In this document: positions 32,945 to 48,733 of the stretch, one piece after another | Numbering within the stretch: position 1 is the stretch's first letter | Layout of the letters: every line of letters starts with the position of its first letter | Assembly: GCF_010501035.1 (NCBI RefSeq) | Contig: NZ_QVMH01000002.1 | Location: 23,812-87,811, forward strand | DNA: 64,000 bases | Direction of reading: 5' to 3' | From: Paludibacter sp. 221 | GTDB taxonomy: Bacteria; Bacteroidota; Bacteroidia; Bacteroidales; Paludibacteraceae | The notes under the pieces: model-generated | What the model was told of the DNA's origin: nothing | The model's database searches: none | What the model saw: only the letters and a program-made list of their open reading frames with translations | Translations under genes and position numbers: made by a program

Positions 32945-32969
32945 CATACATTATTTACTTAAAATTATA

Positions 32970-33017
32970 ATAGCAGGTTTTCTTACAATGGCTTTTTACC
33001 TGAAGAAAACCTGCTAT
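32970..33017 (+). terminator. Terminator of gcvT
   Basis: Perfect 15-bp arms ATAGCAGGTTTTCTT/AAGAAAACCTGCTAT with an 18-nt loop and TTTATTT after. Confidence 0.85.
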
Positions 33018-33088
33018 TTATTTGGGGCTATTCAGTAAATAGTTTCAAAATAGCATGAGCCAGTTATCAGTTCATGCAATTTTTTTTT

Positions 33089-33209: not shown

Positions 33210-36200
33210 TTATGGAGTGACAATCACTTTCAATGTTCTTTCTTCTAAGCCGATTCTGGCTTTTATGATGTATGCTCCGGCTTCGTTAACGTTCACTTCT
33301 GTTAGTCCGTTTGCACGTCCGGAATCAATTATTTTACCCGATACCGAGATTACTTTGTACTCATAGTTTTCTGTACCTTCGATAATGATGGAATAGTTCT
33401 TTGTGTACACATTGAGGCCATTACCGGATAGTTGTTCATCGTTTGTAGAGGTTCCTTTTGTAATGCTGATGAGGTTTGTTTTGCAAGCGGTATTGTCTTT
33501 CAGGTAAATATATCCTGCGTTGTATATTTCGCAGAATACATTTCCTGCAGGTACTTCGATAAACTGGAACTTAGCATCTTCCACTTCGTCATAGTCTTCT
33601 CCCGCTATCAGTTGCTCCTTTTTCGAACCGTTTTGGCGATACCATGTGAATGTAGGATAACGTCCTTTTTCATTATAATAATACCCTACACCTTTTTTGG
33701 AAACGTACCATTTGCTCAAGTCAATAACGTCATTGGTAGTGTATGAATCATTTACTGTATATTCAAAAGACTGAGGCATATAAGATACCGTAAAAGTTCC
33801 TTCCGGTAAATCGTTCAAAGATATATTGTTATTATAACAATCTACAGAAAAGCCGCTTACGGGATTTGGAGGTAGAATAAGTGATGTTATCTTATTATAA
33901 GTACAGTCAAGTTCTTTCAGATTTACATACTTGCTTACATCCAATGTAGTTAATGCTCCTGCCCTACAGGTTAGATTAGTTAATGCTTCAGCATTTTCCG
34001 GTAAAACCAATGTAGTGAAATTACTGTTAGCACTACTGTTCTGATTCGATGTTTCTAAGGTGGTGAGTTTGGATAGTTTACTCACATCCAGCCCATTCAG
34101 GTAGGTGTAATTACTTATCACTTTTCTTAGTTCATTATCTACTGTGTTTGGCAAAATAAGTTCTGTTAAATTCCCGTTGCTTGAACAATTCAGATTTTCC
34201 AGTTTTGTATAGCTGCTCACATCCAGATTTGTGAGGTTGTTGTAACTTACATCTAATGTTTTAAGTTTTTGCGTTTCTGACGGTAAAATTACCGATGTAA
34301 TTAAGTTGCTGCTGCCTTTGCATTCCAACGTTTCCAACGCGCTTGCTTTGCTAAAGTCAGCCGTACGTAAATACTTCGCATTACTTGATGTACTGAACAG
34401 TTTGATTTTTTCGGCATCGCCATACACTTTGATGGTAGTTCCTTTTGGTACTGTACTGAATGTTTCTCCTGTTGTAGTATTTGTAATTGTACGTACATCT
34501 TTTACTCCATTACCCCAGTCAATTTTGATTTCAGTATTAGCTTCTGTAGCCGCAAATTTCAATCCTACATTATAGGTAGTAGCTGTGTTTGTAAACAGCA
34601 TAATCGGGTCTTGAGCCGGAACGATAGTTGCTAAGCTTGTTTTACATTTTTCTCCTCCACTAAGGTCAGGATAGCTTGGGTTGTAAATAACACAATATAC
34701 TTCTCCTGCCGGAATTGTAGGGAATTGGAATTTAGCATTGTCAACAACCGTGTAATCCGTACCTTCTTCCAATGCCGTAGAACTTCCATCCTTATACCAT
34801 GTGAAAGTAGGATAACGTCCTGCTTCATCGTAATTGCTTCCGTATCCCTTTTTAGCTACATACCATTCGCTCAAATCGATAATGTCGTTTGTCTCGTACG
34901 ATTCAGCGAGAGTGTATTTGGCAAACTGCGGATAATAAGATAAATAAGAGAACTGTCCCTCAGGTAATTTATTCAGATGAATATAATTGCTTGAACAATC
35001 CAGATTCAGATTTGATTTAGGATTGGCAGGAATGATAATATCTTCTAACTGGCAGAAAGAACAATCTATATACGTCAAATTATTGTATTTGCTTAAATCC
35101 AAAATGTTGTTATCCATTTTAACACTACTACATTCCAGATGTTCTAATACATCTGTATTTTCGGGCAGTAAAAAACTTTCTAATTTACTTGCACCCGAAA
35201 CAATTATTTTTTTGAGCTTTGCGTATTTGCTTACATCCAAGTTTGTAAGTTTCGACAAATAAGCATAGTCTATCTCGTTTAGTTCATTCCCTTCAGCAGG
35301 AGGCAGGGTGATTTCTGTTAAATTCGAGTTTCTTGAGCAAATCAATGTTTCCAGCTTTGTATATTTGCTTACATCCAGACTTGTAAGATTGTTGCTGCTT
35401 ACATCCAGTTTTTTCAGGTTTTGAGTTTCGTCCGGCAGAACTACCGATGTAATTAAGTTGCTGCTGCCTTTGCATTCCAGTGTTTCTAGTCCGCTTGCTT
35501 TGCTGAAATCAGCAGTACGAAAATACCGGGCATTATTTGAAATACTGAATAGCTTTATTTTCTGCGCATCGCCATACACTTTGATGGTAGTTCCTTTTGG
35601 TGCTGCAGTGAATGTGTTTCCTGTTGTAGTGCTTGTAATTGTACGCACATCTTTTACTCCATTACCCCAGTCAATTTTGATTTCAGTGTTAGCCTCAGTT
35701 GCTGCAAATTTCAATCCAATACTGGCAGTAGTGGCTACATTTGTAAATTGCATAATTGGGTCTGTTGCCTGAATGATGGATGTGAGAGTGGTTTTACATT
35801 TTTCCTGACCGCTCAGGTTCGGGTAGCTTGCATTATAAATAACACAATATACCTCTCCGGTGGGAATCGTCGGGAATTGGAATTTAGCATTGTCAATAAC
35901 TGTGTAATCTGTACCTTCTTCCAACGCAGTAGCGCTTCCATCCTTATACCATGTGAAGGTAGGATAACGCCCTGCTTCATCGTAATTGCTTCCGTATCCT
36001 TTTTTTGCTACATACCATTTGCTCAAATCGATAATGTCGTTTGTTTCGTACGATTCTTCGATGTCGTATTTGGTGAATTGCGGCATATAATACAGATTTG
36101 AGAATTGTCCTTCGGGTAATTTATTCAATGGGATATAATTACTGGAGCAATCAATACTTAGATTTGCTTTTGGACTGGCCGGAATGATAACTTCTTTTAG

Positions 36201-37505
36201 TTCCGAATACTGGCAATCTACATAGGTCAAATTGCTGTATTTGCTTAAATCCAGAATGTTGTCATTTACTTTACTGCTGGTATATTCCAGATATTCTAAT
36301 GCATTCCCGTTTTCGGGGAGGGTAAGGTTTTCTATTTTGCTTAGGTATGTTGCTGTGATTTTTTTAAGTTTTGAGCATTTGCTTACATCAAAGTTTGTAA
36401 AATTCGACAAACTTCCTAAAACAATTTCTTGCAATTCATTATTTTCTCCGGGAAAGGTTAACGAAGTAAGCAAGCTGATACTTTTGATGTTGATATAAGT
36501 CAGGCTTTTGTAATTGCTTAAATCCAACGACGCGATTTTTCCACTGTTTATGGTTATCTTTTGCAGATTTGTTGTTACTGTAGGCAGAACGAGTGTTGTA
36601 AGGTTGCTGTTGCTTGTTAGCTCAAGCGTAGCTAATTTGCTCATACCGCTTACATCCAGGTTTGTAAGTTTCGACCAACTTCCTAAAATTATTTCCTGTA
36701 GGTTGTTGTTTTCTCCAGGGAGGGTTAATGTGGCGAGTAGGCTGGTACTTTTAATATTTATATAAGTCAGATTCTTGTAATCGCTTAAATCCAACGACGC
36801 GATTTTTCCACTGTTTACGGTTATCTTTTGCAGATTTGTTGTTACTGTAGGAAGAACAAGTGTTTCAAGGTAGCTGTTGCTTGTTAGCTCTATTGCGGCT
36901 AATTTGCTCATACCGCTTACATCCAGGTTTATAAGCTTCGTCAAACTTCCTAAAATTAGTTCCTGCAGGTTGTTATTTGCTCCAGGAAAGGTTAACGAGG
37001 CCAGAAGGCTGTTGCTTTTAATGTTGAGGTAAGTCAGGTTTTTATAATCGGTGAAATCCAATGATGCGATTTTTCCACTGTTTACAGTTACCTTTTGCAG
37101 ATTTGTGGTTACTGTAGGCAGAACGAGTGTTGCAAGATTGCTATTGCCAGTTAGTAGCTCAATAGTTGCTAATCCGCTCATGTTGCTTGCATCAATGCCT
37201 GTAAGCTGTGATACGCTCGACATTTTCAGGTATTTAATCTTTGTGGCATCCCCATATACACTTACCGTGCCTGTCGGGGCTTTCACTATATTTGTAGATG
37301 CAGTACCCACAATGTGTTCTACTGTTGTTCCATTACCCCAGTCTACTTGTATGGCTGTGTTATCTTCAGTAGCTTGCAGTACAAAAGTCATATTTGTCTT
37401 ATTTGTACTGGTGAAGGTATTGCTGATGGTAAGTATTGCATCTTCAGCGTATATTGATACGGTGGATAACAATGCTGCTATAAAGAGTAAAATTTGCTTT
37501 TTCAT
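33210..37505 (-). CDS. Giant three-module leucine-rich-repeat protein with T9SS-type C-terminus
   Basis: About 1431 residues from the ATG at 37505, which begins the signal peptide (MKKQILLFIAALLS...IYA). An upstream in-frame ATG adds 21 polar residues. Three modules each contain a beta domain with a WGNG motif (encoded near 37330, 35660 and 34510), a run of BspA-like leucine-rich repeats, and an Ig-like domain with two cysteines (YCVIYN...KCKT). Modules 2 and 3 are 1152 bp apart and nearly identical in places. In module 1 an 89-residue unit starting at GKIASLDL recurs every 267 bp. The last ~80 residues resemble a type A sorting domain, implying T9SS export to the surface. It is the last gene of the SusCD cluster. 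Likely an adhesin or binding protein; ligand unknown. Confidence 0.85.
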   Translation of the reverse strand: MKKQILLFIAALLSTVSIYAEDAILTISNTFTSTNKTNMTFVLQATEDNTAIQVDWGNGTTVEHIVGTASTNIVKAPTGTVSVYGDATKIKYLKMSSVSQLTGIDASNMSGLATIELLTGNSNLATLVLPTVTTNLQKVTVNSGKIASLDFTDYKNLTYLNIKSNSLLASLTFPGANNNLQELILGSLTKLINLDVSGMSKLAAIELTSNSYLETLVLPTVTTNLQKITVNSGKIASLDLSDYKNLTYINIKSTSLLATLTLPGENNNLQEIILGSWSKLTNLDVSGMSKLATLELTSNSNLTTLVLPTVTTNLQKITINSGKIASLDLSNYKSLTYINIKSISLLTSLTFPGENNELQEIVLGSLSNFTNFDVSKCSKLKKITATYLSKIENLTLPENGNALEYLEYTSSKVNDNILDLSKYSNLTYVDCQYSELKEVIIPASPKANLSIDCSSNYIPLNKLPEGQFSNLYYMPQFTKYDIEESYETNDIIDLSKWYVAKKGYGSNYDEAGRYPTFTWYKDGSATALEEGTDYTVIDNAKFQFPTIPTGEVYCVIYNASYPNLSGQEKCKTTLTSIIQATDPIMQFTNVATTASIGLKFAATEANTEIKIDWGNGVKDVRTITSTTTGNTFTAAPKGTTIKVYGDAQKIKLFSISNNARYFRTADFSKASGLETLECKGSSNLITSVVLPDETQNLKKLDVSSNNLTSLDVSKYTKLETLICSRNSNLTEITLPPAEGNELNEIDYAYLSKLTNLDVSKYAKLKKIIVSGASKLESFLLPENTDVLEHLECSSVKMDNNILDLSKYNNLTYIDCSFCQLEDIIIPANPKSNLNLDCSSNYIHLNKLPEGQFSYLSYYPQFAKYTLAESYETNDIIDLSEWYVAKKGYGSNYDEAGRYPTFTWYKDGSSTALEEGTDYTVVDNAKFQFPTIPAGEVYCVIYNPSYPDLSGGEKCKTSLATIVPAQDPIMLFTNTATTYNVGLKFAATEANTEIKIDWGNGVKDVRTITNTTTGETFSTVPKGTTIKVYGDAEKIKLFSTSSNAKYLRTADFSKASALETLECKGSSNLITSVILPSETQKLKTLDVSYNNLTNLDVSSYTKLENLNCSSNGNLTELILPNTVDNELRKVISNYTYLNGLDVSKLSKLTTLETSNQNSSANSNFTTLVLPENAEALTNLTCRAGALTTLDVSKYVNLKELDCTYNKITSLILPPNPVSGFSVDCYNNNISLNDLPEGTFTVSYMPQSFEYTVNDSYTTNDVIDLSKWYVSKKGVGYYYNEKGRYPTFTWYRQNGSKKEQLIAGEDYDEVEDAKFQFIEVPAGNVFCEIYNAGYIYLKDNTACKTNLISITKGTSTNDEQLSGNGLNVYTKNYSIIIEGTENYEYKVISVSGKIIDSGRANGLTEVNVNEAGAYIIKARIGLEERTLKVIVTP
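36290..37140 (-). repeat. 267-bp in-frame tandem repeat in the LRR gene
   Basis: The segment encoding GKIASLDL recurs exactly 267 bp apart (marker sequence GCGATTTTTCCACTGTTTA at 36533, 36800 and 37067). The units are highly similar at DNA level over about three copies; the last diverges toward its end. Edges are approximate. Confidence 0.8.
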
Positions 37506-37630
37506 ATTTTTCTGAATTTGATGGTTAATAATAGGTAAAAACCGCTCAGGGATAAGTTTTGCACTCACGCCTGAGCGATTTTCATCAAATTAAGGGTTAG
37601 GATAAAACTATTTATTAAAAAACTAACGTT

Positions 37631-39424
37631 TTAGAGTTTAATAATTTTGACTGGTTTGGATTGTGAATCTCCATTCATATTTACGATGTAAATTCCGCTG
37701 TTCCAGTCAGATGTATTAATGGTTGTTATATGAGAGTTCAGAATCGTCTCATACACTTTTTTGCCGCTTATATCAAATACTGATATTTCTCCTCCTACAT
37801 TCTCTGATTCGATAGTAAATTCCTCATTGAATACGGTAGGGTATATGTTGAAGTTGGCTGCTTCTACGCTTTTGTCAGAACTTTCGTAACCAAACTTATG
37901 GAATGTAACACTTGGTGCAAGGTAGAAAGACAAACCTTCCAAATCATAGAACGGATATGGTAACTCGTGAAGCGGATACCAGCCTTCTCCTACTTTCAGT
38001 TCGGGTGTAGGTGGCTCGTCCGTTTCAGGAATGTATGCGAAAGCCTTTGTGTCGCGATTGGCTTTATAGAAGCAGATGAAACCCATGTAAGTTGCAGATG
38101 ATTCTTTGAGCGATTCGTCAATCTCTATTGCTACGTAGAATGTACCTTCTACCTCAACAGGGGTGTCAAATGTTATTTTGCAATCCCTTTTTTCTGAAAT
38201 AACAGAAGTTGTTCCGAATGCTTTGCTCATGGTTGTCTGGTATGATCCAAATACTTTATCAGGATCAGGAACGCCTTCTGCATCTCCATAAATTTTTACG
38301 GTTACGGGCTTTGTCCTGTCTTTTGAAGCAACTTTGTATTCATACAGCATGAGCGATACGGCGTTGACGCTGAGTTTTGCACCTTCGGGCATGTCAAATT
38401 TTTCGGCAAACGCTTTATAATAACGGTTGAATCCGCTTACATATTCATAACCATTGTTCATCAGGTCTTCAGGACGGTAGAGGGATTTGCCATCTATCTT
38501 TTCCTGGTTTGAAATTATTCCTGAAATTTCTTCGCTTCCCAAAACGCATACGTTTACAGTATCTTTATATGTGGCAGAACCATTGAAATTAGTTGCGGTA
38601 AGCACGGGTTCATAATACCCGCTTTCGGTATAATAAACCGTAGGGTTCTCTTCTGTGGAACTTGCCGGATTTCCTAATGTTTCCCAACTGTAGCTTGAAG
38701 CGTATTTTGACCTATTGATAAACGTAATAGGTTGGTCAGGATATACGTATCTGAAGTAGTTTTTTACGTTGTTGGTAGACGAAGGGTCGCTGGCAGCCGA
38801 CCAGATTCCTCCGGTGGTTATATAATCAGCTTGTACGGCAGGTGGATTGTCTTCTGCATATACTTCGAAATTGTCGATACAAATACCGTTTGACATACCG
38901 TTATCGGTATAAACGTTGAACGCGAAATAATAGATGCCCGACGTTTCGGCTGTAAATTTACATTCGAATTGCGTCCATTCCAGAAATCTTGTTCCTTTTA
39001 TGTCTTCCAGAACAACGGTTTGCCCTTCTTTGGTTTGTGATGTTCCTACGGTGAATTTTATCTTATCACTCAGATTACCATTTGAAAAACCGGCTGCGTA
39101 TAGCCAGAAGCTTGTATAGTAGGTTTTTCCGGCCTGCAGATTGAATCCTACGCTGAATGCCCAATCGTTGCGAGGATAGGTAGCATTATTATCCGAAAAC
39201 TGCAAATAATATGGTTTCGTGTAAGGAACGCAATAAGCGTCGTTCCATGCTCCCATTTTTACGTTCGATTTACTGTCGGCAAGCCATCCGTCAGGTAAGA
39301 CAGTTCCTTCCGCATAGGTATCAAAGTTTTCGAAATACGGAAGTGTTGCAGTACCTTGTGCTACTACTTTCACTCCTGATACTGTCAAGAGAAAGAAAAT
39401 TAAGAGGTAAATGCATTTTTTCAT
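37631..39424 (-). CDS. T9SS-secreted protein with choice-of-anchor J and PKD-like domains
   Basis: A 597-residue protein with signal peptide 1-23 (VSGVKVVAQ). Residues ~27-190 form a jelly-roll-like choice-of-anchor J region (LPYFENFDTYAEGTVLPDGW ... GICIDNFEVYAED). A PKD-like segment follows (ITFINRSKYASSYSWETLGN ... GYYEPVLTATNFNG), then a large domain without a clear name. The last ~80 residues are a type A T9SS sorting domain (FNIYPTVFNEEFTIES, SVFDISGKKVYE, GIYIVNMNG, VKIIKL). It is predicted surface-anchored. It lies between the DUF4302 lipoprotein and the LRR gene. No catalytic motif seen. Confidence 0.87.
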   Translation of the reverse strand: MKKCIYLLIFFLLTVSGVKVVAQGTATLPYFENFDTYAEGTVLPDGWLADSKSNVKMGAWNDAYCVPYTKPYYLQFSDNNATYPRNDWAFSVGFNLQAGKTYYTSFWLYAAGFSNGNLSDKIKFTVGTSQTKEGQTVVLEDIKGTRFLEWTQFECKFTAETSGIYYFAFNVYTDNGMSNGICIDNFEVYAEDNPPAVQADYITTGGIWSAASDPSSTNNVKNYFRYVYPDQPITFINRSKYASSYSWETLGNPASSTEENPTVYYTESGYYEPVLTATNFNGSATYKDTVNVCVLGSEEISGIISNQEKIDGKSLYRPEDLMNNGYEYVSGFNRYYKAFAEKFDMPEGAKLSVNAVSLMLYEYKVASKDRTKPVTVKIYGDAEGVPDPDKVFGSYQTTMSKAFGTTSVISEKRDCKITFDTPVEVEGTFYVAIEIDESLKESSATYMGFICFYKANRDTKAFAYIPETDEPPTPELKVGEGWYPLHELPYPFYDLEGLSFYLAPSVTFHKFGYESSDKSVEAANFNIYPTVFNEEFTIESENVGGEISVFDISGKKVYETILNSHITTINTSDWNSGIYIVNMNGDSQSKPVKIIKL

Positions 39425-39459
39425 AAACGTTAATTTATTAATAATTAATACTATGTTTT

Positions 39460-40752
39460 TTATTTTGAAAGTATAAACCAGATTTTTTCAGGATCGTCCA
39501 GTCGGGTGAACGAAATTTCGTTCGGAATTTTAAGATTATTATAAACCAGCTCATACGGAGCTTCATCAGTGAGGTATAAACGGAAAGTACGGAAATACTC
39601 ATAATAGAACAGTAGCGCCATCTGGTCACCTACTGCCTCTTCGTCCAATGATAACCTGACCATTCTATTCCCGTCTCCTTCGTATCCGTCTTCCATTGCT
39701 TGTTCTTTTGTCAGTGCATAAAATCTCAGATAAAAGTTTGCATTAAAAGCCTGCTTGTCATTCCGCGAGTAACTATATAACGAAAGCAGTTCATATGGGC
39801 TTCGCAGGTAAACGAATAGCAGTTGCTCGTTTGCTTTTTTATCAAGGTTTTCTACAATTTCATTCCACAAGCTTGTAAACCGTGTTCCCATCCTTTCCCC
39901 ATCAAAAAACCAGTTGCCCCTTTTATTTATAAAGGCTTGGTTCAGCGGCATATGGTTTATTTGTGCAGTAACATTCTCGTCTATACATATCAGGTTGGCA
40001 TTGTTTCCCGACCATTTGAAATGCTGTAACGTCTGGTTGTGAACTTTTACAGGTTCTTTGAACTTTATACCCTCCAGTGTGTATATATATGGCACACCAT
40101 CAGTTTCAGAGATGTCGCTTGTGGATAGATAGCGACCTATTTCGGCCGATTCGGAAAAAGATATTTTCTCGTTATTTACCTGCAATTCCATGGTAAAACC
40201 GGGATTGTATTTTATAATCGTATCCAGTTCTCTCGAAAAGTCCTGCCATGTTTTGTCTTTCGGAAATTTTACCATGTTCATCTTTATTCCATGTTTTTTC
40301 CCTTTCAGGCTGATGGTGTCATTATTTGCCGACATGATTATAAATTCATAATCTCCCTCATAGCCCAGCCCGTCGGGCTCAGGGTCGGAAAACTGGTGCA
40401 GTATGCGGTTATAGGTATCGAAGCTCAACAGAGGCCCCATATCTGCTTTTAGCGCAAACAGGCTGGTTATCTTTTCGTTGTCTTCTTTTAATATCGGTGT
40501 TTCTCCTGTAATGCTCACTTTTCCGTCCTTGCTGAAATTCAGATACAGGTTGAAGCCTCCGAATTTAGTATCGTTCGGGTAGTATTCGAGCAACCAGCCA
40601 TTTTCGGCAGAGCTTAGGATTTCCAGATATTCTTTTAGAGTATTGTCTATCCTGTCTCCATCCCCGTTCCCGAAAATATCATCTTCCACAAAGGAACATG
40701 CGAAAGTGCTGAAAGCTATTAACAGAAGTATTATGTATTTTGCCTTGCTCAT
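39460..40752 (-). CDS. DUF4302 lipoprotein
   Basis: A 430-residue lipoprotein (lipobox TFAC, Cys19). The DUF4302 signature is clear near the N-terminus: RIDNTLKEYLEILSSAENGW, YYPNDTKFGGFNLYLNFSKDGKV, and KADMGPLLSFDTYNRILHQFSDP. Members regularly occur beside SusC/SusD and zinc metallohydrolase lipoproteins, but biochemical function is unknown. It starts 5 nt after the metallohydrolase gene ends, so the two are almost certainly cotranscribed. Probably an accessory surface lipoprotein of the importer. Confidence 0.9.
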   Translation of the reverse strand: MSKAKYIILLLIAFSTFACSFVEDDIFGNGDGDRIDNTLKEYLEILSSAENGWLLEYYPNDTKFGGFNLYLNFSKDGKVSITGETPILKEDNEKITSLFALKADMGPLLSFDTYNRILHQFSDPEPDGLGYEGDYEFIIMSANNDTISLKGKKHGIKMNMVKFPKDKTWQDFSRELDTIIKYNPGFTMELQVNNEKISFSESAEIGRYLSTSDISETDGVPYIYTLEGIKFKEPVKVHNQTLQHFKWSGNNANLICIDENVTAQINHMPLNQAFINKRGNWFFDGERMGTRFTSLWNEIVENLDKKANEQLLFVYLRSPYELLSLYSYSRNDKQAFNANFYLRFYALTKEQAMEDGYEGDGNRMVRLSLDEEAVGDQMALLFYYEYFRTFRLYLTDEAPYELVYNNLKIPNEISFTRLDDPEKIWFILSK

Positions 40753-40757
40753 TTTCT

Positions 40758-41636
40758 TTAGTCGTTTAAAATAGATTCAATGTTTTGCGCGCGTCTGCTG
40801 ATAATGTTACGAAGCTTATGAATATCAATATCCCAGGTGATATTCAGCCATTCCTCTACGATGTCAAATTTTTTCTCAATTTTTTTAGCCCCTTCTTCTC
40901 CTGCTTTGTCCAGCATGTTTTGCCAGTATTCGTCGGAGTTTACAAGATACATGGCTATTATTTCCACGAAATCTTCTTGTGGCTCCCTGCTTGCATAAGG
41001 TGTTACGAAACCAAGCTTCCATGCCTGTTCTGTAGTTCGGTTTTGCCAGCCTGTAGAGGAGTAATCGGCTGCCGATATGAGGTTAAACTCAACCGGAATT
41101 TCTTCGTTCTGGTGAAGAATGTGACTGAACTCGTGGTGCATTGTCTCAAAATAATACTCATTCAGCATTTCTATATCCGTGGGGTCAATGGCGTTTACTT
41201 TGTAAAGTATAACCTTTATTCCTCCTTCGGCCGTACCAAGCACTTCAGTTCCCGATGAGGAATTGATAGCCGCCGAACCTACCAACTGTATTACCTTAGG
41301 TGCGTATGTGCGCATGAAGTCCTTGTTCACTCCTGTTGCATCAAATAGTTCATCGTAAGCTTCCAGCCACAGGTATTTTATTATCTTAGCCAAGTCCTTC
41401 GACTTTTCCATATCAGCCGGAATCAGATTGTAGGTCAGGTCGGCTTCTCCGTCGTCCAGCCTGTATTTGAAGTCGATATTATACTCTTTTACATACGTAT
41501 TGAGCAACCATTTGTCAAATTCATTTCTTTCCGGTGGATTGGTGTCGAAAATACTTGGGCCAAGTTTTTCTTCCGAGCATCCTATCAGCGAAGTGAATAA
41601 TATGATTGATATAAAATATGAAAATGCTTTTTTCAT
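40758..41636 (-). CDS. Substrate import-associated zinc metallohydrolase lipoprotein
   Basis: A 292-residue lipoprotein (lipobox LIGC, Cys20). The metallopeptidase motif HEFSH (HExxH) is at residues 168-172, followed ~70 residues later by EDFVEIIAMYL, which may supply the third ligand. The family is known for its co-occurrence with SusC/SusD rather than by a demonstrated substrate. Located between susD and the DUF4302 gene, it likely cleaves the bound substrate at the cell surface or in the periplasm. A peptidase rather than a glycoside hydrolase in this position suggests protein-derived cargo. Confidence 0.9.
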   Translation of the reverse strand: MKKAFSYFISIILFTSLIGCSEEKLGPSIFDTNPPERNEFDKWLLNTYVKEYNIDFKYRLDDGEADLTYNLIPADMEKSKDLAKIIKYLWLEAYDELFDATGVNKDFMRTYAPKVIQLVGSAAINSSSGTEVLGTAEGGIKVILYKVNAIDPTDIEMLNEYYFETMHHEFSHILHQNEEIPVEFNLISAADYSSTGWQNRTTEQAWKLGFVTPYASREPQEDFVEIIAMYLVNSDEYWQNMLDKAGEEGAKKIEKKFDIVEEWLNITWDIDIHKLRNIISRRAQNIESILND

Positions 41637-41742
41637 CTTGTTTTTATATTAAGTATCCTATTAAAATCTAATGTTATGTGTTTCATTCTCGGTTTATAAG
41701 GAAATGATACTTGTAACTTATAAGCTAAATATTTGTAGCTGT

Positions 41743-43263
41743 TTATCTCGGATTTGCTTCCATACCTGCAGCTATCACAGCCGATGGAATTTGAATCACT
41801 CTTCGTAAATCATCTTTCTTCAACACATCATCGTCCTGACCATATATCGCGTGTTTTACTTCAATTCCATAACGTCTTATGTCGAACCAGCGCAAGCCCT
41901 CGTGTATAGTTTCGCAACGGCGGAAATGTAGTACACAATGCAGGAAGTTAAGTTGCTTTTCGTCTGCAATTTCAAATTTTGGATTCAATTCGGGTGTCAG
42001 TACCGATACCGCAGTGCTGTAGTAATCTTCTATTTTGGTTTCAGTCAGTTCCGGCACTCCGCTTACAGTTCTTTTGTTATACCATGCTGCCAGGTCTTTA
42101 GTAGCATTAACATAGTCTTTTTTATGAACGTATGCTTCGGCACGGCATAGCAGGGCTTCGTCGGTAGTGAATACCGTATTCACTATATTGAGAAACCCTG
42201 TTCCTGCCACCGGGTCGCTATATTCGATGAGAAGGTTGTATTTCGGAAAATAGGTAACCCTGTCAGTTCCAAAAACTTTTGCTGCCGGATAAAAGTACTC
42301 GGAATCTACCCAAGGTCCCGGTCCCCATAGGGTTTCTTCCAGCTTCTTCATATTGTGTGCATATCGGTACCATGTACGATAACCCCAATGGTTGTACGTC
42401 CATTGCGAAGCGGCAGGCATCAACAACAGATTGCAAGGCGGATTAGATTGTATGTACTCTATTGCGACATCTTTATTCGATGAGAAACTTAGATAGGATT
42501 CGTAATCACGCAACACTTTTTCGGGGTCGTTTCCTATTGCCTTTGTTGCATAAGTGATACACTTATCATAATTTTCATAATACAAGTTGAAGCGTGCTGC
42601 AAAGGCATAAGCCGCTTTTTGGTTGAAGTGATACTTTATAGCCGATTTTTTATAGTATGAATCGCTTATCAATGGTAATGCTTCTTCAATGTCGCGGTTT
42701 ATTCTTTCGTAAACGTCGGCTACCGTTCCTCTTTCGTATTTACCTTCTACAATTTTTTCCGATTCTTCTACATAAGGTATTCCCAAATCGGTAGTGCTGG
42801 TTTGCTTATTGTAATGCTGGCTGAAAATGTTGACTAAAATAAAATGAGCATAGGCACGGCATATCAACGCTTCGCCTTTGTGCGGTGAATAATCATCAGG
42901 ATTGTCAACCGATTCGATAAACTGCAAGGCATGGTTTGCTGCTGCAATTGACTTATAATACAGTTCCCATACAAATTGTGGTGTGTCTTGCTGATTGTCT
43001 GTGAAGTTTTCCCATTTATAGCTTTCTTCCACTGTTTTGTTGAAAAAAGTATATAAGGGCCCATTGTCGGTTACGTTATCCGACATGAGTTCTGTCATTT
43101 GCACATAAGTGCCGGTAGGGTAGGCCGAAACTAATAACTGGGCTACTTTTTCAGCATTATTCAATTCTGTCCTGTTATCCGGCATTTGGTTGAGGAAACC
43201 ATCACACGATGTAAACAGGATAGTCGCTGTAATCGAGAGTATATATATAATCTTCTTTTTCAT
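41743..43263 (-). CDS. SusD/RagB-family nutrient-binding lipoprotein
   Basis: A 506-residue surface lipoprotein (lipobox LFTSC, Cys20). The N-terminal part has the TPR-like helical core (SAYPTGTYVQMTELMSDNVT, then GEALICRAYAHFILVNIFSQ), and the C-terminal part the RagB/SusD pattern ending in FRRCETIHEGLRWFDIRRYG and a terminal PSAVIAAGMEANPR. It caps the SusC pore and captures substrate. The gene starts 6 nt after susC ends. The short form, about 500 residues without extra insertions, is typical of RagB-like peptide or protein systems as well as glycan systems. Confidence 0.95.
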   Translation of the reverse strand: MKKKIIYILSITATILFTSCDGFLNQMPDNRTELNNAEKVAQLLVSAYPTGTYVQMTELMSDNVTDNGPLYTFFNKTVEESYKWENFTDNQQDTPQFVWELYYKSIAAANHALQFIESVDNPDDYSPHKGEALICRAYAHFILVNIFSQHYNKQTSTTDLGIPYVEESEKIVEGKYERGTVADVYERINRDIEEALPLISDSYYKKSAIKYHFNQKAAYAFAARFNLYYENYDKCITYATKAIGNDPEKVLRDYESYLSFSSNKDVAIEYIQSNPPCNLLLMPAASQWTYNHWGYRTWYRYAHNMKKLEETLWGPGPWVDSEYFYPAAKVFGTDRVTYFPKYNLLIEYSDPVAGTGFLNIVNTVFTTDEALLCRAEAYVHKKDYVNATKDLAAWYNKRTVSGVPELTETKIEDYYSTAVSVLTPELNPKFEIADEKQLNFLHCVLHFRRCETIHEGLRWFDIRRYGIEVKHAIYGQDDDVLKKDDLRRVIQIPSAVIAAGMEANPR

Positions 43264-43269
43264 ATCTTT

Positions 43270-46200
43270 TTATAAGCTAACCCTTAATGTTACGGTGAAT
43301 TGTTTTGGTACAGGGGTAGAAACACCTCCCGAACGGAAAAACTCAGGGTCTTGTCCGTTTAGTTTTTTGTCTGCATACAGCAGGAATAAATTAGTACCCT
43401 GCACTTTAAGTTGCAGGCTATTCAGGTTCAAATGTTGTATCCATTCTTTTTTGAAATCGTAACTCAGCGATATTTCTTTCATGCGGATGAATCCCCCGCT
43501 TGCTATGCGTATGTCCGAATAGTTGTAGGCATTGTAAGCGTATTTCAGATTTGGTATATCCTTTTCCTGCCTTACGCTGGCTATTACGGGCACGTTTGTT
43601 TTCAGTTTGTCGCCCGGCATGCGCCAGCGGTTGTTAAACTCACGCGGCATAGCATCCATATCCGTGTATTTGCTTTTGAATACAGGGTCTAAGCGCACTA
43701 CATTTCCGAACGAATAGGTGATAAACAGATTAAGACTGAAATTCTTGTACGTAAACAAGTTACCGAAACTACCGTTGATGGTAGGGTCGGTAGGGCCTTC
43801 GTATTTTAGAAATCCTTTCTTTTCTATCTCCTGGAAGTCGATATCCGTAATTGTTATTTCGTCGTTTTGGTTAATGAACATAGGTAGCCCGTCTTCGCTT
43901 AGTCCAACAAAAGGTATGGAGAAAAGCGAGCGTACGGGGCGGCCTTCCTCTGCATATCCCGCACCGGAAATTAACGCCATTACCCTTGTACGCGAATCGA
44001 GTTTGGTAATTTCATTTTCAGAAAATCCGAAAATAAAATCCGTATTCCATTTGAAGTCTTTGGTAACAATGTTTTTTGTGGATAACGTGAACTCTATACC
44101 ATGCGATTTCATGGAAGCTACGTTTGCATATTTTCCAACTTCACCTCCGGCTCCTTGCGTGAATATAGGGCCTATCAAATCGAAATTGTTACGTGTATAA
44201 AAGTCGGTACTTAGGTTAATCCGGTTTTTTAGGAAACCCATATCCGCGCCGATATTAAATTCGTGTTTCTTTTCGTAAGTGAGTTCGCTGTTTTCCAGAC
44301 TTTCTATTTCCAGTCCCGACTCTTTTACACCTGCAAACGGGCGGAAAGGTGAATAGTTGCGGTAAACCACATGCGAGTTAGTGACAAATGCGGGGCCACG
44401 GTCGGCAGTCAAGCTGTATGATGTTTTCAGCGTGAAGTGCGATAATGCAGGGGTAAGCGCCGAGAAGAATTTTTCCTCGTGCATATTCCAAGCCAGGGCC
44501 ACATTCCACGTAGGCAACCAACGTGCCGCGCGGGATTTACCTAAGCGGTTTGAGCCTTCGTAACGCAGCGTTCCATTTATGGTATATTTACCTTCGTACG
44601 AGTAAGTTGCCATGCCGAAAAACGCAAGGTTTCGCGAGTATGTCACATAATTGTAGTAATACTGGTTATTTTGCTCAATTCCTTGTTTGAAAATAAGGTA
44701 ATCATAAAACGGCACACCACCTTTGTCGTATTGATATCCCCAACCTCTTGAGTAGTATTGTCCACGGTCTACCGAGTTTGCTTCTGTCCCTCCAAACAGC
44801 CGTATAAGGTGTGTGTCGTTGATACTGGTGTTGTAATTCATACTTGCACGCAAGTCGTACCCCATCATTTTGTATTCGTTCTTATCAAGAATCCCTCCTT
44901 CGGGTAATACTACAACGGGAAGGGCGTTGGCTTCTTCCAGATTTTTGTACAGCAAAGGGTTTTTGTCACGGATAATTGCGTCGCCTGCAGCACGGTAAGC
45001 CTCAGCCTGATTCGATTTATCGTGCATGGTATGTTCCTGCGAAGTAGTCTGATACTTTACAGCACCTAAAACACTTGCTTCCAACCCTTTTATGATTTTC
45101 CAGTTTAGTTCCCCTTGAAATTTCAGGTCGACAACGTCCAGTTCGATATAATTTCGTTCCAGTTCGCTTTCTATGTTGAAAGGAGCATAATTGCGTGTGT
45201 AATATTCCAAGTCGCCCGATTCGTTTCTTAACGCCAATGTACGTGATGTATTCAGGGCATAGCTGTAGGGGTTTATATCGAAGTCGCGGCGTACTTCGCC
45301 ACTTACTACGTTTACCTCTTGGCTAAGTGTTCCCGGAGCTTTTTGCTTCCGGTACGAGCTATTCGATAGCAATGTCAGTGTCAGGTTTTTAGCCAGATTG
45401 AACGATGCGTTTGTATTCGCAGTATAACGGCTCACGGAGCTAGCCTTTGTCCATCCCGGGTCTTGAAATACACTCAACGAAGCGTAATACCTTGCTTTGT
45501 CGCTTCCCGAACTGATGCTTATCGCGTGGTTTTGGGTCAGGTTTGTATTGAACAGTTCGTCAAACCAGTCTGTGTTGCGCATTTCGGCTTGTTGCAAATA
45601 TCGGTTGCGGGCTTCCGGTGTGTTTTCCAGTTCCCATGCTTGTTTTACAGGGTCGTAGGTATTTGTAAGCTGGTACATTTTTCCGTATACTCCACTGTTC
45701 GACACACGGTATGAATCAGCAAAATTGAACCAGTTTTTCTGATCCATTTCGTTATATACGCTCATCTGGTCTTGCGAGTTCATGATATTGAAGTCGCGGT
45801 AGCTTGGCTTCAGTCGTGTTGTAAATTCTCCGGTGTATGTAATGCGGTTTACGCCTACCTGACCACGTTTTGTGGTTATTACTACCACACCCGCCATTGC
45901 TCTGGCTCCATAAATAGAGGTTGCCGAGCCGTCTTTCAGTATCTGAAAACTCTCTATATCATCGGCACTCAATCCGGCAATGGCTGAGCTTATAAGAGTA
46001 ATCGCATCGCCCGACGATAAGTCGTCCGAGTCAATCTCTACAGCGTCTTCCATAATTACGCCATCCACTACCCATAGCGGTTTCGAACTGCCATATATGG
46101 AGGTTGCACCACGTACACGGATTTTTGGAGCAGTACCGAAAGTACCTGATACGTTTTGTACTGAAACTCCGGCAGAGCGTCCCTCAAGCGCACGGCTTAC

Positions 46201-46887
46201 GTCAGGTATCCCGTCCAGACGTGCTTTATCTCCTTTTATATTGTCGCTGGCTCCGGTAAACAAGCGTTTGTCCACAGCCACCATACCTGTTACTACTACT
46301 TCTTCCAGTATTTGTGAGTCTGATTTCAGAGTGATTTTCATAGGAGCATCTTTTATGCCTGTCTCCTGTGTCTCCATGCCTATATAAGAGATAACGACAC
46401 TTTTGGCTCCGTCGGGAACAGCTAAATGAAAATTTCCGTCGAAATCTGTAATTGTACCTACACTCGGAAATTCTTTGAAAAAAACGGTAACCCCCGGCAG
46501 CGTTTCACCCGATTCGTCGGTGATAACGCCTGATATTGTTTTCTGCTCCTTTGGCGGGTTGTCTTTCAGTTTGAAAATCTGGATGTATTTGTCCTTTATC
46601 TCATAACTCAGGTTTTGCCCTTCCAGAATAACATCCAGTGCTTCGGAAACGCTCTTATCCTTAATTTCTGTTGTAATTTTTTTCTTAAGGTCAATATCGT
46701 TTACATTGAACCATAGTGAGTATGAAGTCTGTGATTTTAGTTGTTCAAGGGCATCCTTCACGGTTACATCCTTGAGGTTTAATGTAATGTTCTTTTCCTG
46801 AGCCGATATTGTAAACTGGCAGCACCACAGGAAAAGAAGCATAACTCCTGCCTTTACAAGGCTTCTCATGTTTGTTTTATACATCAA
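43270..46887 (-). CDS. SusC/RagA-family TonB-linked outer-membrane transporter
   Basis: A 1205-residue TonB-dependent transporter. Domains in order: signal peptide (to ~29), STN secretin/TonB short N-terminal domain (about 50-110) that contacts the FecR anti-sigma, carboxypeptidase-like regulatory domain (ISGVITDESGETLPGVTVFF), plug with the SusC signature (KIRVRGATSIYGSSKPLWVV ... LKDGSATSIYGARAMAGVVV), and a 22-strand barrel ending in a terminal aromatic-free VSL strand. The STN domain together with the upstream sigma/FecR genes indicates trans-envelope signalling induced by the imported ligand. Confidence 0.96.
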   Translation of the reverse strand: MMYKTNMRSLVKAGVMLLFLWCCQFTISAQEKNITLNLKDVTVKDALEQLKSQTSYSLWFNVNDIDLKKKITTEIKDKSVSEALDVILEGQNLSYEIKDKYIQIFKLKDNPPKEQKTISGVITDESGETLPGVTVFFKEFPSVGTITDFDGNFHLAVPDGAKSVVISYIGMETQETGIKDAPMKITLKSDSQILEEVVVTGMVAVDKRLFTGASDNIKGDKARLDGIPDVSRALEGRSAGVSVQNVSGTFGTAPKIRVRGATSIYGSSKPLWVVDGVIMEDAVEIDSDDLSSGDAITLISSAIAGLSADDIESFQILKDGSATSIYGARAMAGVVVITTKRGQVGVNRITYTGEFTTRLKPSYRDFNIMNSQDQMSVYNEMDQKNWFNFADSYRVSNSGVYGKMYQLTNTYDPVKQAWELENTPEARNRYLQQAEMRNTDWFDELFNTNLTQNHAISISSGSDKARYYASLSVFQDPGWTKASSVSRYTANTNASFNLAKNLTLTLLSNSSYRKQKAPGTLSQEVNVVSGEVRRDFDINPYSYALNTSRTLALRNESGDLEYYTRNYAPFNIESELERNYIELDVVDLKFQGELNWKIIKGLEASVLGAVKYQTTSQEHTMHDKSNQAEAYRAAGDAIIRDKNPLLYKNLEEANALPVVVLPEGGILDKNEYKMMGYDLRASMNYNTSINDTHLIRLFGGTEANSVDRGQYYSRGWGYQYDKGGVPFYDYLIFKQGIEQNNQYYYNYVTYSRNLAFFGMATYSYEGKYTINGTLRYEGSNRLGKSRAARWLPTWNVALAWNMHEEKFFSALTPALSHFTLKTSYSLTADRGPAFVTNSHVVYRNYSPFRPFAGVKESGLEIESLENSELTYEKKHEFNIGADMGFLKNRINLSTDFYTRNNFDLIGPIFTQGAGGEVGKYANVASMKSHGIEFTLSTKNIVTKDFKWNTDFIFGFSENEITKLDSRTRVMALISGAGYAEEGRPVRSLFSIPFVGLSEDGLPMFINQNDEITITDIDFQEIEKKGFLKYEGPTDPTINGSFGNLFTYKNFSLNLFITYSFGNVVRLDPVFKSKYTDMDAMPREFNNRWRMPGDKLKTNVPVIASVRQEKDIPNLKYAYNAYNYSDIRIASGGFIRMKEISLSYDFKKEWIQHLNLNSLQLKVQGTNLFLLYADKKLNGQDPEFFRSGGVSTPVPKQFTVTLRVSL

Positions 46888-46920
46888 TATAAAGTTTTAT
46901 ATTTTTCGGAATAGAGTTTT

Positions 46921-48018
46921 TTACTTTCTTGAAATGACGATTTCGTTCTCTTTGATAGAATAATGCAGATTGTTGTTTTTCGCCATTATTTCGAGAATTT
47001 CAGTGATTGTTTCTTCGTTACGGAAATCGCCGTAGAAACGTTCATTTTGCAATGTAGCGTCTTGTACTTCGATTTTTACGTTGTATACACGTTCCAGGTC
47101 ACGGGTAATCTGGCTTAGCGGTTCTTCATCGAAAAACAGGATATTGCGTAGTGTAACGTGTGGTGTCCGTATAGATGCCTTTACACCTGTTTCTTCGTCT
47201 TTTCCTATTATCTCCAACGATTCTGATTTAGGCTCAGTCCATTTAGCATAAGCTAATGCGTCTACTTTTTTTACATTGACTTTTTCTTCTTTTTTGTCGA
47301 TAAAAGCCTGTTGGTTAGGTTCTAATAGGATAGGTGCCTTCTGGTTTTTAGCATTGGCTACAGTCAGGCTTCCTTCTACCAGAGTAACCCGCGCGCTTTC
47401 GTCTTCCAGATAAGACTTGAAGTTAAACTTGGTTCCTAATACATGTACTTTTACTTCGCCCGACTGAACATGAAAAGGCAATGACTCGTTTCTTTCTACA
47501 TCGAAGTAGCCTTCGCCATCTAATATAACATCACGGTTGCTGCGTCCGAAATTCTCTTTGTAAGAAAGCCGGCTTCCTGAGTTTAGCCATACGGTAGAGC
47601 CGTCGGGCAGGATAACTTTGGATTTGGAACCGAAGGGGATTTCTATTGTTTGTGCAAGTTTATTATCGTCCGTACCGGGTTGGAACAGATAGATGGAAAC
47701 TATGCCTAAGGCAAAAGCAACTACGAATATGGCAGCATAACGTGCCAAATGAGGAAAAATGCGTTTTTGGGTGCTTTTTTCCGTGATGCTTTTTGTTTTT
47801 CCTACAAAACGGAAATAGGCTGTTTCTGCTTCACCTTCGAAACGTGATTTGTTTTTGATTATACACAGGCTTTTCTGAAGGGCGTAATAATCGTTGTACT
47901 CTTTTTTATTTACGTCGTTGGCATTGTACCATTCTTTTAAATAAATGAGCTCATTCTCAGATATTTTACCTGACAACTGTTTCTCAATAAGCGTGTAAAC
48001 GTTGTATTTTTGTTCCAT
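46921..48018 (-). CDS. FecR-family anti-sigma factor
   Basis: A 365-residue inner-membrane protein. Residues 1-80 are cytoplasmic and hold the sigma-binding N-terminus (YNVYTLIEKQLSGKISENEL). A single transmembrane segment at about 88-110 (AAIFVVAFALGIVSIYLF) precedes the periplasmic FecR domain (IEIPFGSKSKVILPDGSTVW, VILDGEGYFDVERNESLPFH) and a C-terminal DUF4974-type domain (LSQITRDLERVYNVKIEV). It should sequester the sigma factor encoded 133 bp upstream until SusC signals ligand uptake. Confidence 0.94.
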   Translation of the reverse strand: MEQKYNVYTLIEKQLSGKISENELIYLKEWYNANDVNKKEYNDYYALQKSLCIIKNKSRFEGEAETAYFRFVGKTKSITEKSTQKRIFPHLARYAAIFVVAFALGIVSIYLFQPGTDDNKLAQTIEIPFGSKSKVILPDGSTVWLNSGSRLSYKENFGRSNRDVILDGEGYFDVERNESLPFHVQSGEVKVHVLGTKFNFKSYLEDESARVTLVEGSLTVANAKNQKAPILLEPNQQAFIDKKEEKVNVKKVDALAYAKWTEPKSESLEIIGKDEETGVKASIRTPHVTLRNILFFDEEPLSQITRDLERVYNVKIEVQDATLQNERFYGDFRNEETITEILEIMAKNNNLHYSIKENEIVISRK

Positions 48019-48151
48019 GATTTTTTCGGTCTTACTTAAATAAGACGAAAAAAGGAACTATAGGGGGTAGTGGAGAAATTGATTTTTTTTAATAAAAGAG
48101 CATGTTTTTGTAAAAAAAAGCATCAGAATGTTATAAAGAGTTGCATTTTTT

Positions 48152-48733
48152 CTAATAAAAGAAATGAAAATAGATGGCAATGGTTACTGCCAAAAATTCT
48201 TTCAATCCGCTGCGAAGAATACCAAGCGCCTGCTTGATATGGTATTTCACCGTATTGATAGAAATGTTGAGTTCTTCCGCTATCTGATTGTACGTTTTAT
48301 CTTCGTAGCGACTCATCATAAAAACCTTGCGGGTTTCGGGAGGCATAGTGTCGGTTATATCATTTATTTTATTTTGTAACTCCAAAAGTAAAATTCTTTC
48401 AAATAGTTCTTCGTCCGGAGTGAAGCAGTCTTTCTCTTGTATTTCATCGTAGTTTACAGCACTTGTTTCGCTTTTGTTTTTTCTGATAAAATCAATGCTC
48501 CTGTTTCGTACTGCACGCAAAAGGTAGGATTTGATTGAAACGGATATTTCCAGTTCCTTCCTTTTTTCCCATACATTAAGCATTACATCGTCGGCAATAT
48601 TGCGGCTGGCGTGGTCGTCCCTCACATACTCATAGGCTACGGCACACATAAGGGCGTAGTAATTGTCGAACAACAATCTGAATGCCTTCATATCGCCCAA
48701 ACGGATTTTTTCTATGAGTTGTTTGTCTTGCAT
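48152..48733 (-). CDS. ECF sigma factor, Bacteroides expansion type
   Basis: A 193-residue ECF sigma factor. Region 2: FRLLFDNYYALMCAVAYEYV, DDVMLNVWEKRKEL and IKSYLLRAVRNRSIDFIRK. Region 4: MPPETRKVFMMSRYEDKTYN then AEELNISINTVKYHIKQALG. It carries a short hydrophobic C-terminal tail (VTIAIYFHFFY), common in this group. Being the first gene of the SusCD cluster, it most likely drives its own operon, released by FecR. Confidence 0.94.
   Translation of the reverse strand: MQDKQLIEKIRLGDMKAFRLLFDNYYALMCAVAYEYVRDDHASRNIADDVMLNVWEKRKELEISVSIKSYLLRAVRNRSIDFIRKNKSETSAVNYDEIQEKDCFTPDEELFERILLLELQNKINDITDTMPPETRKVFMMSRYEDKTYNQIAEELNISINTVKYHIKQALGILRSGLKEFLAVTIAIYFHFFY

What the first reader, a model, noticed from the sequence alone, without database searches (positions are those of the whole stretch)
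33210..48733. SusCD cluster without carbohydrate enzymes, ending in T9SS-exported binding proteins
Sigma, FecR, SusC, SusD, a zinc metallohydrolase lipoprotein, DUF4302, a choice-of-anchor J/PKD protein and a giant LRR protein run on one strand with short gaps. There is no glycoside hydrolase, lyase or esterase, and the only hydrolase is a HEFSH metallopeptidase. The SusCD/metallohydrolase/DUF4302 association is established. Coupling it to two surface proteins exported by a different route (T9SS) suggests a surface capture-cleave-import device for protein or peptide ligands. This is the best candidate in the window for an undescribed system.
Basis: partly seen in the sequence, partly recalled or inferred. 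Interest (0 to 1): 0.6.

Follow-up and report, generated by a model that had tools for sequence, protein, structure and literature searches.

The report
Iron-capture-like SusCD island with surface proteins
This is a complete, apparently mobile eight-gene outer-membrane uptake island whose core matches, gene for gene, the system Capnocytophaga uses to take iron from the blood protein transferrin, but here it is extended with large surface proteins sent out by a different secretion route, so it is a new variant of a known machine rather than a new one.

Summary
Eight same-strand genes (ECF sigma, FecR, STN-SusC, SusD, TIGR04549/Peptidase_Mx1 lipoprotein, DUF4302 lipoprotein, choice-of-anchor-J protein "CHJ", LRR protein) lie between unrelated opposite-strand neighbours.

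The SusC-SusD-Mx1-DUF4302 core is nearly invariant in about 68 loci across Bacteroidia. It matches icsC-F of the Capnocytophaga iron (transferrin) capture system, so the core is not undescribed.

The T9SS coupling is real for CHJ. CHJ has a sorting domain above cut-off, the genome encodes the T9SS sortase, and CHJ travels with this core subtype in four genomes. In other relatives the same slot often holds an unrelated T9SS-tailed protein, or a BACON, Calx-beta or LRR lipoprotein in genomes without T9SS.

The LRR protein is weaker. Its sorting domain is sub-threshold, it occurs with the core in only three genomes, and a strong terminator-like hairpin, conserved in position, precedes it.

The whole island is shared with Bacteroides salyersiae and B. 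nordii without shared flanks. Divergence rises from SusC (76% identity) to LRR (35%).

Best reading: an inducible, ICS-type machine that captures a protein ligand, probably cleaves it and imports a product. Whether the payload is iron or peptide is unresolved, because published expression data conflict. Verdict: new variant of a known kind.

The parts
48152..48733 (-). ECF sigma factor (TIGR02985 family)
   Evidence: 51-56% identical to the B. salyersiae and B. nordii copies
46921..48018 (-). FecR-type anti-sigma regulator (FecR + FecR_C)
43270..46887 (-). SusC/RagA TonB-dependent transporter with N-terminal STN signalling domain
   Evidence: closest solved structures 8ypt/8ypu
41743..43263 (-). 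SusD-like surface lipoprotein
   Evidence: lipobox Cys20 in 58 of 59 relatives
40758..41636 (-). Zinc metallohydrolase lipoprotein (TIGR04549 / Peptidase_Mx1, IcsE-like); the only copy in the genome
   Evidence: solved homologues 4l7a and 9urd
41121..41135 (-). HEFSH zinc site (H168, E169, H172); likely third ligand in E221-D222-xx-E225 (40962-40976)
   Evidence: H168, E169, H172, D222, E225 in at least 57 of 58 relatives, E221 in 56 of 58
39460..40752 (-). DUF4302 surface lipoprotein (IcsF-like by position)
   Evidence: position matches icsF in Capnocytophaga ochracea
37631..39424 (-). CHJ: choice-of-anchor-J / PKD-like secreted protein with T9SS type A sorting domain (residues 527-596)
   Evidence: kept with the core in B. 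salyersiae, B. nordii and G903
37543..37577 (-). GC-rich hairpin (CGCTCAGG...CCTGAGCG) followed by GTTTTT: intrinsic-terminator or attenuator candidate between CHJ and LRR
   Evidence: equivalents at the same place in L030 and L031
33210..37505 (-). LRR protein, 1431 aa, signal peptide, sub-threshold T9SS tail
32953..33018 (.). 16-bp-stem hairpin with U-rich tail downstream of LRR; candidate bidirectional terminator facing the convergent gcvT gene

Best explanation
The island is an inducible outer-membrane machine of the iron-capture-system (ICS) kind that scavenges something from a protein ligand outside the cell. Proposed working, inferred except where the evidence field shows it: CHJ, and probably the LRR protein, are carried to the cell surface by the T9SS and act as a ligand-catching layer. 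The ligand is handed to the surface lipoproteins DUF4302 and SusD. The Mx1 zinc hydrolase on the outer membrane nicks or loosens the protein. SusC imports the released product (iron or peptide) by TonB power. Ligand-loaded SusC signals through its STN domain to FecR, which frees the ECF sigma factor to transcribe the island. The LRR gene is probably transcribed at a lower or separate level because of the hairpin in front of it. My split of the payload: peptide or glycopeptide about 0.45, iron about 0.35, glycan about 0.1, other 0.1.
For: Shown by computation: core order SusC-SusD-Mx1-DUF4302 in about 68 loci, with one clear exception, L121. Zinc site and lipoprotein Cys nearly invariant in Mx1. 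Same order in Capnocytophaga ochracea, identified by its exact genome length of 2,612,925 bp, followed by a lipoprotein and an OM beta-barrel, that is icsC-H-like. From literature: in C. canimorsus every ICS protein is needed for iron from serotransferrin, and the R. anatipestifer icsE homologue B739_0101 is annotated as this metallohydrolase and is induced about 8-fold, with its operon, by iron limitation (PMC5429918). The B. thetaiotaomicron copy BT3960 is enriched in outer-membrane vesicles (PMC6222051). T9SS coupling: sortase present in own genome (1148 bits); 18 of 26 downstream secreted proteins match the T9SS sorting domain; 0 of 9 loci in T9SS-lacking genomes have a tailed protein there, against 14 of 38 in T9SS-bearing ones. 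The eight genes travel as one unit, with CHJ also in G903.
Against: No ligand, binding or protease activity has been shown for any member in the sources read here. IcsG- and IcsH-like genes are not in the island, and IcsG is not found in the genome. In B. thetaiotaomicron the same operon (BT3958-3961) falls 2.6-3.6-fold under iron depletion (PMC10434189) and is reported as induced by mucin O-glycan core 1, GOS and milk oligosaccharides (PMC5238430), which points to a glycan or glycoprotein signal. A Fur-box scan found nothing, but it also failed on the Capnocytophaga locus, so it has no power. The LRR tail is below cut-off.
Confidence: 0.55

Rival explanations
1. It is specifically an iron-acquisition system that strips ferric iron from a transferrin- or lactoferrin-like protein, as the Capnocytophaga ICS does.
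For: Gene-for-gene match of four core genes with the ICS; iron-limitation induction of the Riemerella homologue; FecR-type regulation.
Against: The B. thetaiotaomicron homologue falls under iron depletion; no detectable Fur site (low power); IcsG absent; many carriers lie in lineages not tied here to vertebrate blood or milk; sigma/FecR/STN is also the usual control of glycan loci.
Confidence: 0.33
2. It is a nutrient system for peptides or glycopeptides cut from host or dietary (glyco)proteins such as mucin.
For: Surface hydrolase with a conserved zinc site; no carbohydrate enzymes in the island; mucin-type induction of the B. thetaiotaomicron operon.
Against: The only genetically tested relative, as reported in PMC5429918, takes iron; closest solved SusC proteins are 8ypt/8ypu rather than the peptide importers RagA or BT2264, and their ligand is not known from the sources read.
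Confidence: 0.4
3. It is an ordinary glycan PUL whose enzymes lie elsewhere in the genome.
For: SusCD, sigma/FecR and STN are typical of glycan loci; the B. thetaiotaomicron relative responds to mucin O-glycan and milk oligosaccharide; BACON proteins fill the fifth slot in some relatives.
Against: No carbohydrate enzyme in the island or among the downstream proteins scanned from relatives.
Confidence: 0.12
4. CHJ and LRR are unrelated surface proteins that happen to lie downstream of the operon.
For: Hairpin before LRR; LRR with the core in only 3 genomes; distant CHJ and LRR homologues occur elsewhere.
Against: The eight-gene block is shared with two Bacteroides species with no shared flanking genes; CHJ occurs twice in the G903 locus, once between sigma and FecR; downstream slot enriched for T9SS-tailed proteins in relatives.
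Confidence: 0.15

Closest known systems
Iron capture system (ICS, icsA, icsC-H) of Capnocytophaga canimorsus, with homologues in Riemerella anatipestifer (B739_0098-0103)
   Same: SusC, SusD, TIGR04549 metallohydrolase and the next lipoprotein (DUF4302, icsF by position) in the same order.
   Different: Window has sigma/FecR/STN control and CHJ + LRR secreted proteins; lacks the icsG lipoprotein and icsH barrel; iron role untested here.
Bacteroides thetaiotaomicron BT3958-BT3961
   Same: SusC, SusD, protease-annotated lipoprotein and DUF4302 in the same order.
   Different: Reported as a mucin/HMO-responsive locus; no T9SS proteins reported for it in the sources read.
Bacteroides salyersiae and B. 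nordii islands (L030, L031)
   Same: All eight genes in the same order, plus a hairpin before LRR.
   Different: 35-76% identity by gene; different flanking genes.
RagAB / BT2261-2264 peptide importers
   Same: SusCD transporter without carbohydrate enzymes.
   Different: SusC matches them less well than 8ypt/8ypu; recalled, not tested: they lack Mx1 and DUF4302.

Membership tests
ICS (iron capture system) | SusC + SusD + zinc metallohydrolase + DUF4302 (icsC-F) in order | tested here: met
   DUF4302 = IcsF rests on position in C. ochracea, not on the C. canimorsus sequence
ICS (iron capture system) | icsG lipoprotein and icsH next in the cluster | tested here: not met
   next genes are CHJ and LRR; icsG-like protein not found in the genome; icsH-like searched by position only
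ICS (iron capture system) | induction by iron limitation / Fur control | tested here: inconclusive
   Fur-box scan null for the window and for the Capnocytophaga control
ICS (iron capture system) | uses serotransferrin iron | not testable with these tools
   needs growth assays
TIGR04549 substrate import-associated zinc metallohydrolase lipoprotein | score over cut-off, lipoprotein Cys, HExxH, next to SusCD | tested here: met
   333 vs 75 bits; Cys20 and HEFSH conserved
Polysaccharide utilization locus | SusCD pair with carbohydrate-active enzyme | tested here: not met
   SusCD present, no CAZyme in the island
T9SS cargo: CHJ | type A sorting domain over cut-off and T9SS in genome | tested here: met
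   41.5 vs 23 bits; PorU sortase 1148 vs 420 bits
T9SS cargo: LRR protein | type A sorting domain over cut-off | tested here: inconclusive
   16.6 and 21.5 vs 23 bits; B. salyersiae orthologue 21.6
Sigma/FecR trans-envelope signalling locus | ECF sigma, FecR and STN-bearing SusC adjacent | tested here: met

The most novel reading that the evidence does not exclude
The core acts as a universal capture-cleave-import chassis whose target is set by an exchangeable surface protein in the slot after DUF4302. In T9SS-bearing bacteria that protein is exported by T9SS and hands its prey to a SusCD transporter, a physical link between two surface-export routes. Non-homologous proteins fill the slot in different lineages.
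Probability: 0.28. Interest if true: 0.65.

Novelty: new variant of a known kind. Interest (0 to 1): 0.42.

Why it matters
The function of a widespread four-gene module (SusC, SusD, Mx1, DUF4302), annotated mostly as glycan uptake or unknown, can be tied to one genetically tested system, which gives testable predictions for many Bacteroidia. If the downstream T9SS protein feeds the SusCD transporter, it would join two export pathways in one uptake machine and offer a route for switching ligands by swapping a single gene.

Tried and rejected
CHJ structure: three-sequence alignment gave pLDDT 41, unusable. DUF4302 structure: pLDDT 66; the fold search gave nothing at E<=0.001. Best hits were weak beta-barrel or calycin-like matches with TbpB far down the list, not used as evidence. 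Fur-box scan: null, positive control also null. Rfam: no family in the window. Bacteroides-type promoter pattern: no site upstream of the island. The supplied sigma-70 and terminator scan was not above shuffles and missed the CHJ/LRR hairpin because it allows loops of only 3-8. Homology of CHJ to the fifth-slot proteins of relatives rejected: only the sorting tail aligns. Flavobacterial 660-aa downstream gene inspected and left out: it looks like an unrelated beta-barrel protein. Literature on 8YPT/8YPU/9URD: none held.

Full report
What is there. The window holds eight genes on the minus strand between 48733 and 33210: ECF sigma, FecR, SusC with an STN signalling domain, SusD, a zinc metallohydrolase lipoprotein (Mx1, TIGR04549), a DUF4302 lipoprotein, a choice-of-anchor-J protein (CHJ) and a leucine-rich-repeat protein. 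Both flanking genes are on the opposite strand. Gaps are short except 106 bp (SusD/Mx1), 125 bp (CHJ/LRR) and 133 bp (sigma/FecR). None of the eight is a carbohydrate enzyme. The genome (3.1 Mb, 102 contigs) has a single TIGR04549 gene.

The core. Searches of 150 genomes of the window's family, about 400 of its class and 250 of a flavobacterial family, with the neighbourhoods fetched, show SusC-SusD-Mx1-DUF4302 in that order in about 68 loci. Several are cut by contig ends; L121 is the one clear exception without a recognisable DUF4302. In 58 Mx1 proteins the lipoprotein Cys and the first zinc His are invariant, and the catalytic Glu, second His and downstream Glu are in 57. So the enzyme is very likely active as a hydrolase (inference; no assay).

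What the core is. In Riemerella anatipestifer the gene named 'substrate import-associated zinc metallohydrolase' (B739_0101) is the icsE homologue of the Capnocytophaga canimorsus iron capture system. SusC and SusD are icsC and icsD, and the operon is induced by iron limitation (PMC5429918). That paper, citing the original work, states that each ICS protein is required for using serotransferrin iron. One genome in the search has exactly 2,612,925 bases, the published length of Capnocytophaga ochracea VPI 2845 (PMC3035226). Its locus reads SusC-SusD-Mx1-DUF4302-206 aa lipoprotein-205 aa outer-membrane barrel, which maps onto icsC-H and makes DUF4302 the IcsF counterpart by position. The core is therefore not undescribed.

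Conflict over payload. B. thetaiotaomicron has the same order in BT3958-BT3961. That operon falls under iron depletion (PMC10434189) and is reported as responsive to mucin core 1 disaccharide, galactooligosaccharide and milk oligosaccharides (PMC5238430). BT3960, annotated as a protease, is enriched in outer-membrane vesicles (PMC6222051). The family may serve different payloads, or a glycoprotein may be the common ligand. My Fur-box scan cannot decide, because it also failed on the Capnocytophaga locus.

The T9SS part. The genome encodes the T9SS sortase (1148 bits) and 53 sorting-domain matches. CHJ has a clear sorting domain; the LRR protein's is below cut-off. In relatives, the gene after DUF4302 often encodes an unrelated protein with a T9SS tail: 18 of 26 such proteins match TIGR04183. 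Where the genome lacks T9SS, the slot holds lipoproteins with BACON or Calx-beta domains, in one case followed by a BACON-LRR lipoprotein. Counting loci, 14 of 38 in T9SS-bearing genomes and 0 of 9 in T9SS-lacking genomes have a tailed protein there (Fisher p = 0.04). The tail profile behind these counts was trained partly on the same proteins, so the enrichment of 15/58 against 5/704 is biased upward; one search is the independent check. Apart from the tail, CHJ and the other fifth-slot proteins do not align.

The unit. Bacteroides salyersiae and B. nordii carry all eight genes in the same order, and both encode the T9SS sortase. None of their flanking genes matches the window. Their core groups with the window at support 1.0, apart from the native copies of the window's own family. 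This suggests transfer of the whole block. Identity falls from SusC 76, Mx1 71, SusD 63-66, FecR 58, sigma 51-56, DUF4302 46-51, CHJ 42 to LRR 35 per cent, as expected if the outermost proteins evolve fastest. A fourth genome, G903, has Sig-CHJ-FecR-SusC-SusD-Mx1-DUF4302-CHJ2 without LRR, which firmly ties CHJ to this subtype. LRR remains an accessory of three genomes.

Transcription. Between CHJ and LRR lies a strong hairpin followed by a U run (z = -7), and unrelated hairpin sequences sit at the same place in B. salyersiae and B. nordii. No such element was found in the other internal gaps. LRR expression is probably attenuated or separate.

Judgement. It missed the iron capture system and overstated the LRR link. 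I rate the finding a new variant of a known kind.

Noticed in passing
L030, L031 (B. salyersiae, B. nordii genomes G545, G546): Both species encode a full-length T9SS sortase (1113 and 1081 bits), which from general knowledge is unusual for the genus Bacteroides.
   Followed up: partly
L194:12478-14274 and L193:8014-9873 (genome G903): Two CHJ genes in one ICS-like island, one of them inserted between the sigma factor and FecR.
   Followed up: yes
L113 (genome G375): Tandem duplication of the SusC-SusD-Mx1-DUF4302 core with strongly diverged second copies.
   Followed up: no
L102, L120, L121 (genome G180): Three different core copies in one T9SS-lacking genome; one is followed by Calx-beta and BACON-LRR lipoproteins, one lacks a recognisable DUF4302.
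   Followed up: partly
L141:9500-10888 (B. nordii): A second, short LRR protein related to the window's, divergent from an unrelated SusCD pair.
   Followed up: no
L114:2487-6542 and L114:6608-9373 (genome G477): Two large proteins (a subtilase-GEVED protein with a T9SS sorting tail and a 921-aa protein with a similar tail) lie downstream of a core; the sortase match in that genome was below cut-off.
   Followed up: no
window:32953-33018: Long hairpin (16-bp perfect stem) between the LRR gene and convergent gcvT.
   Followed up: partly
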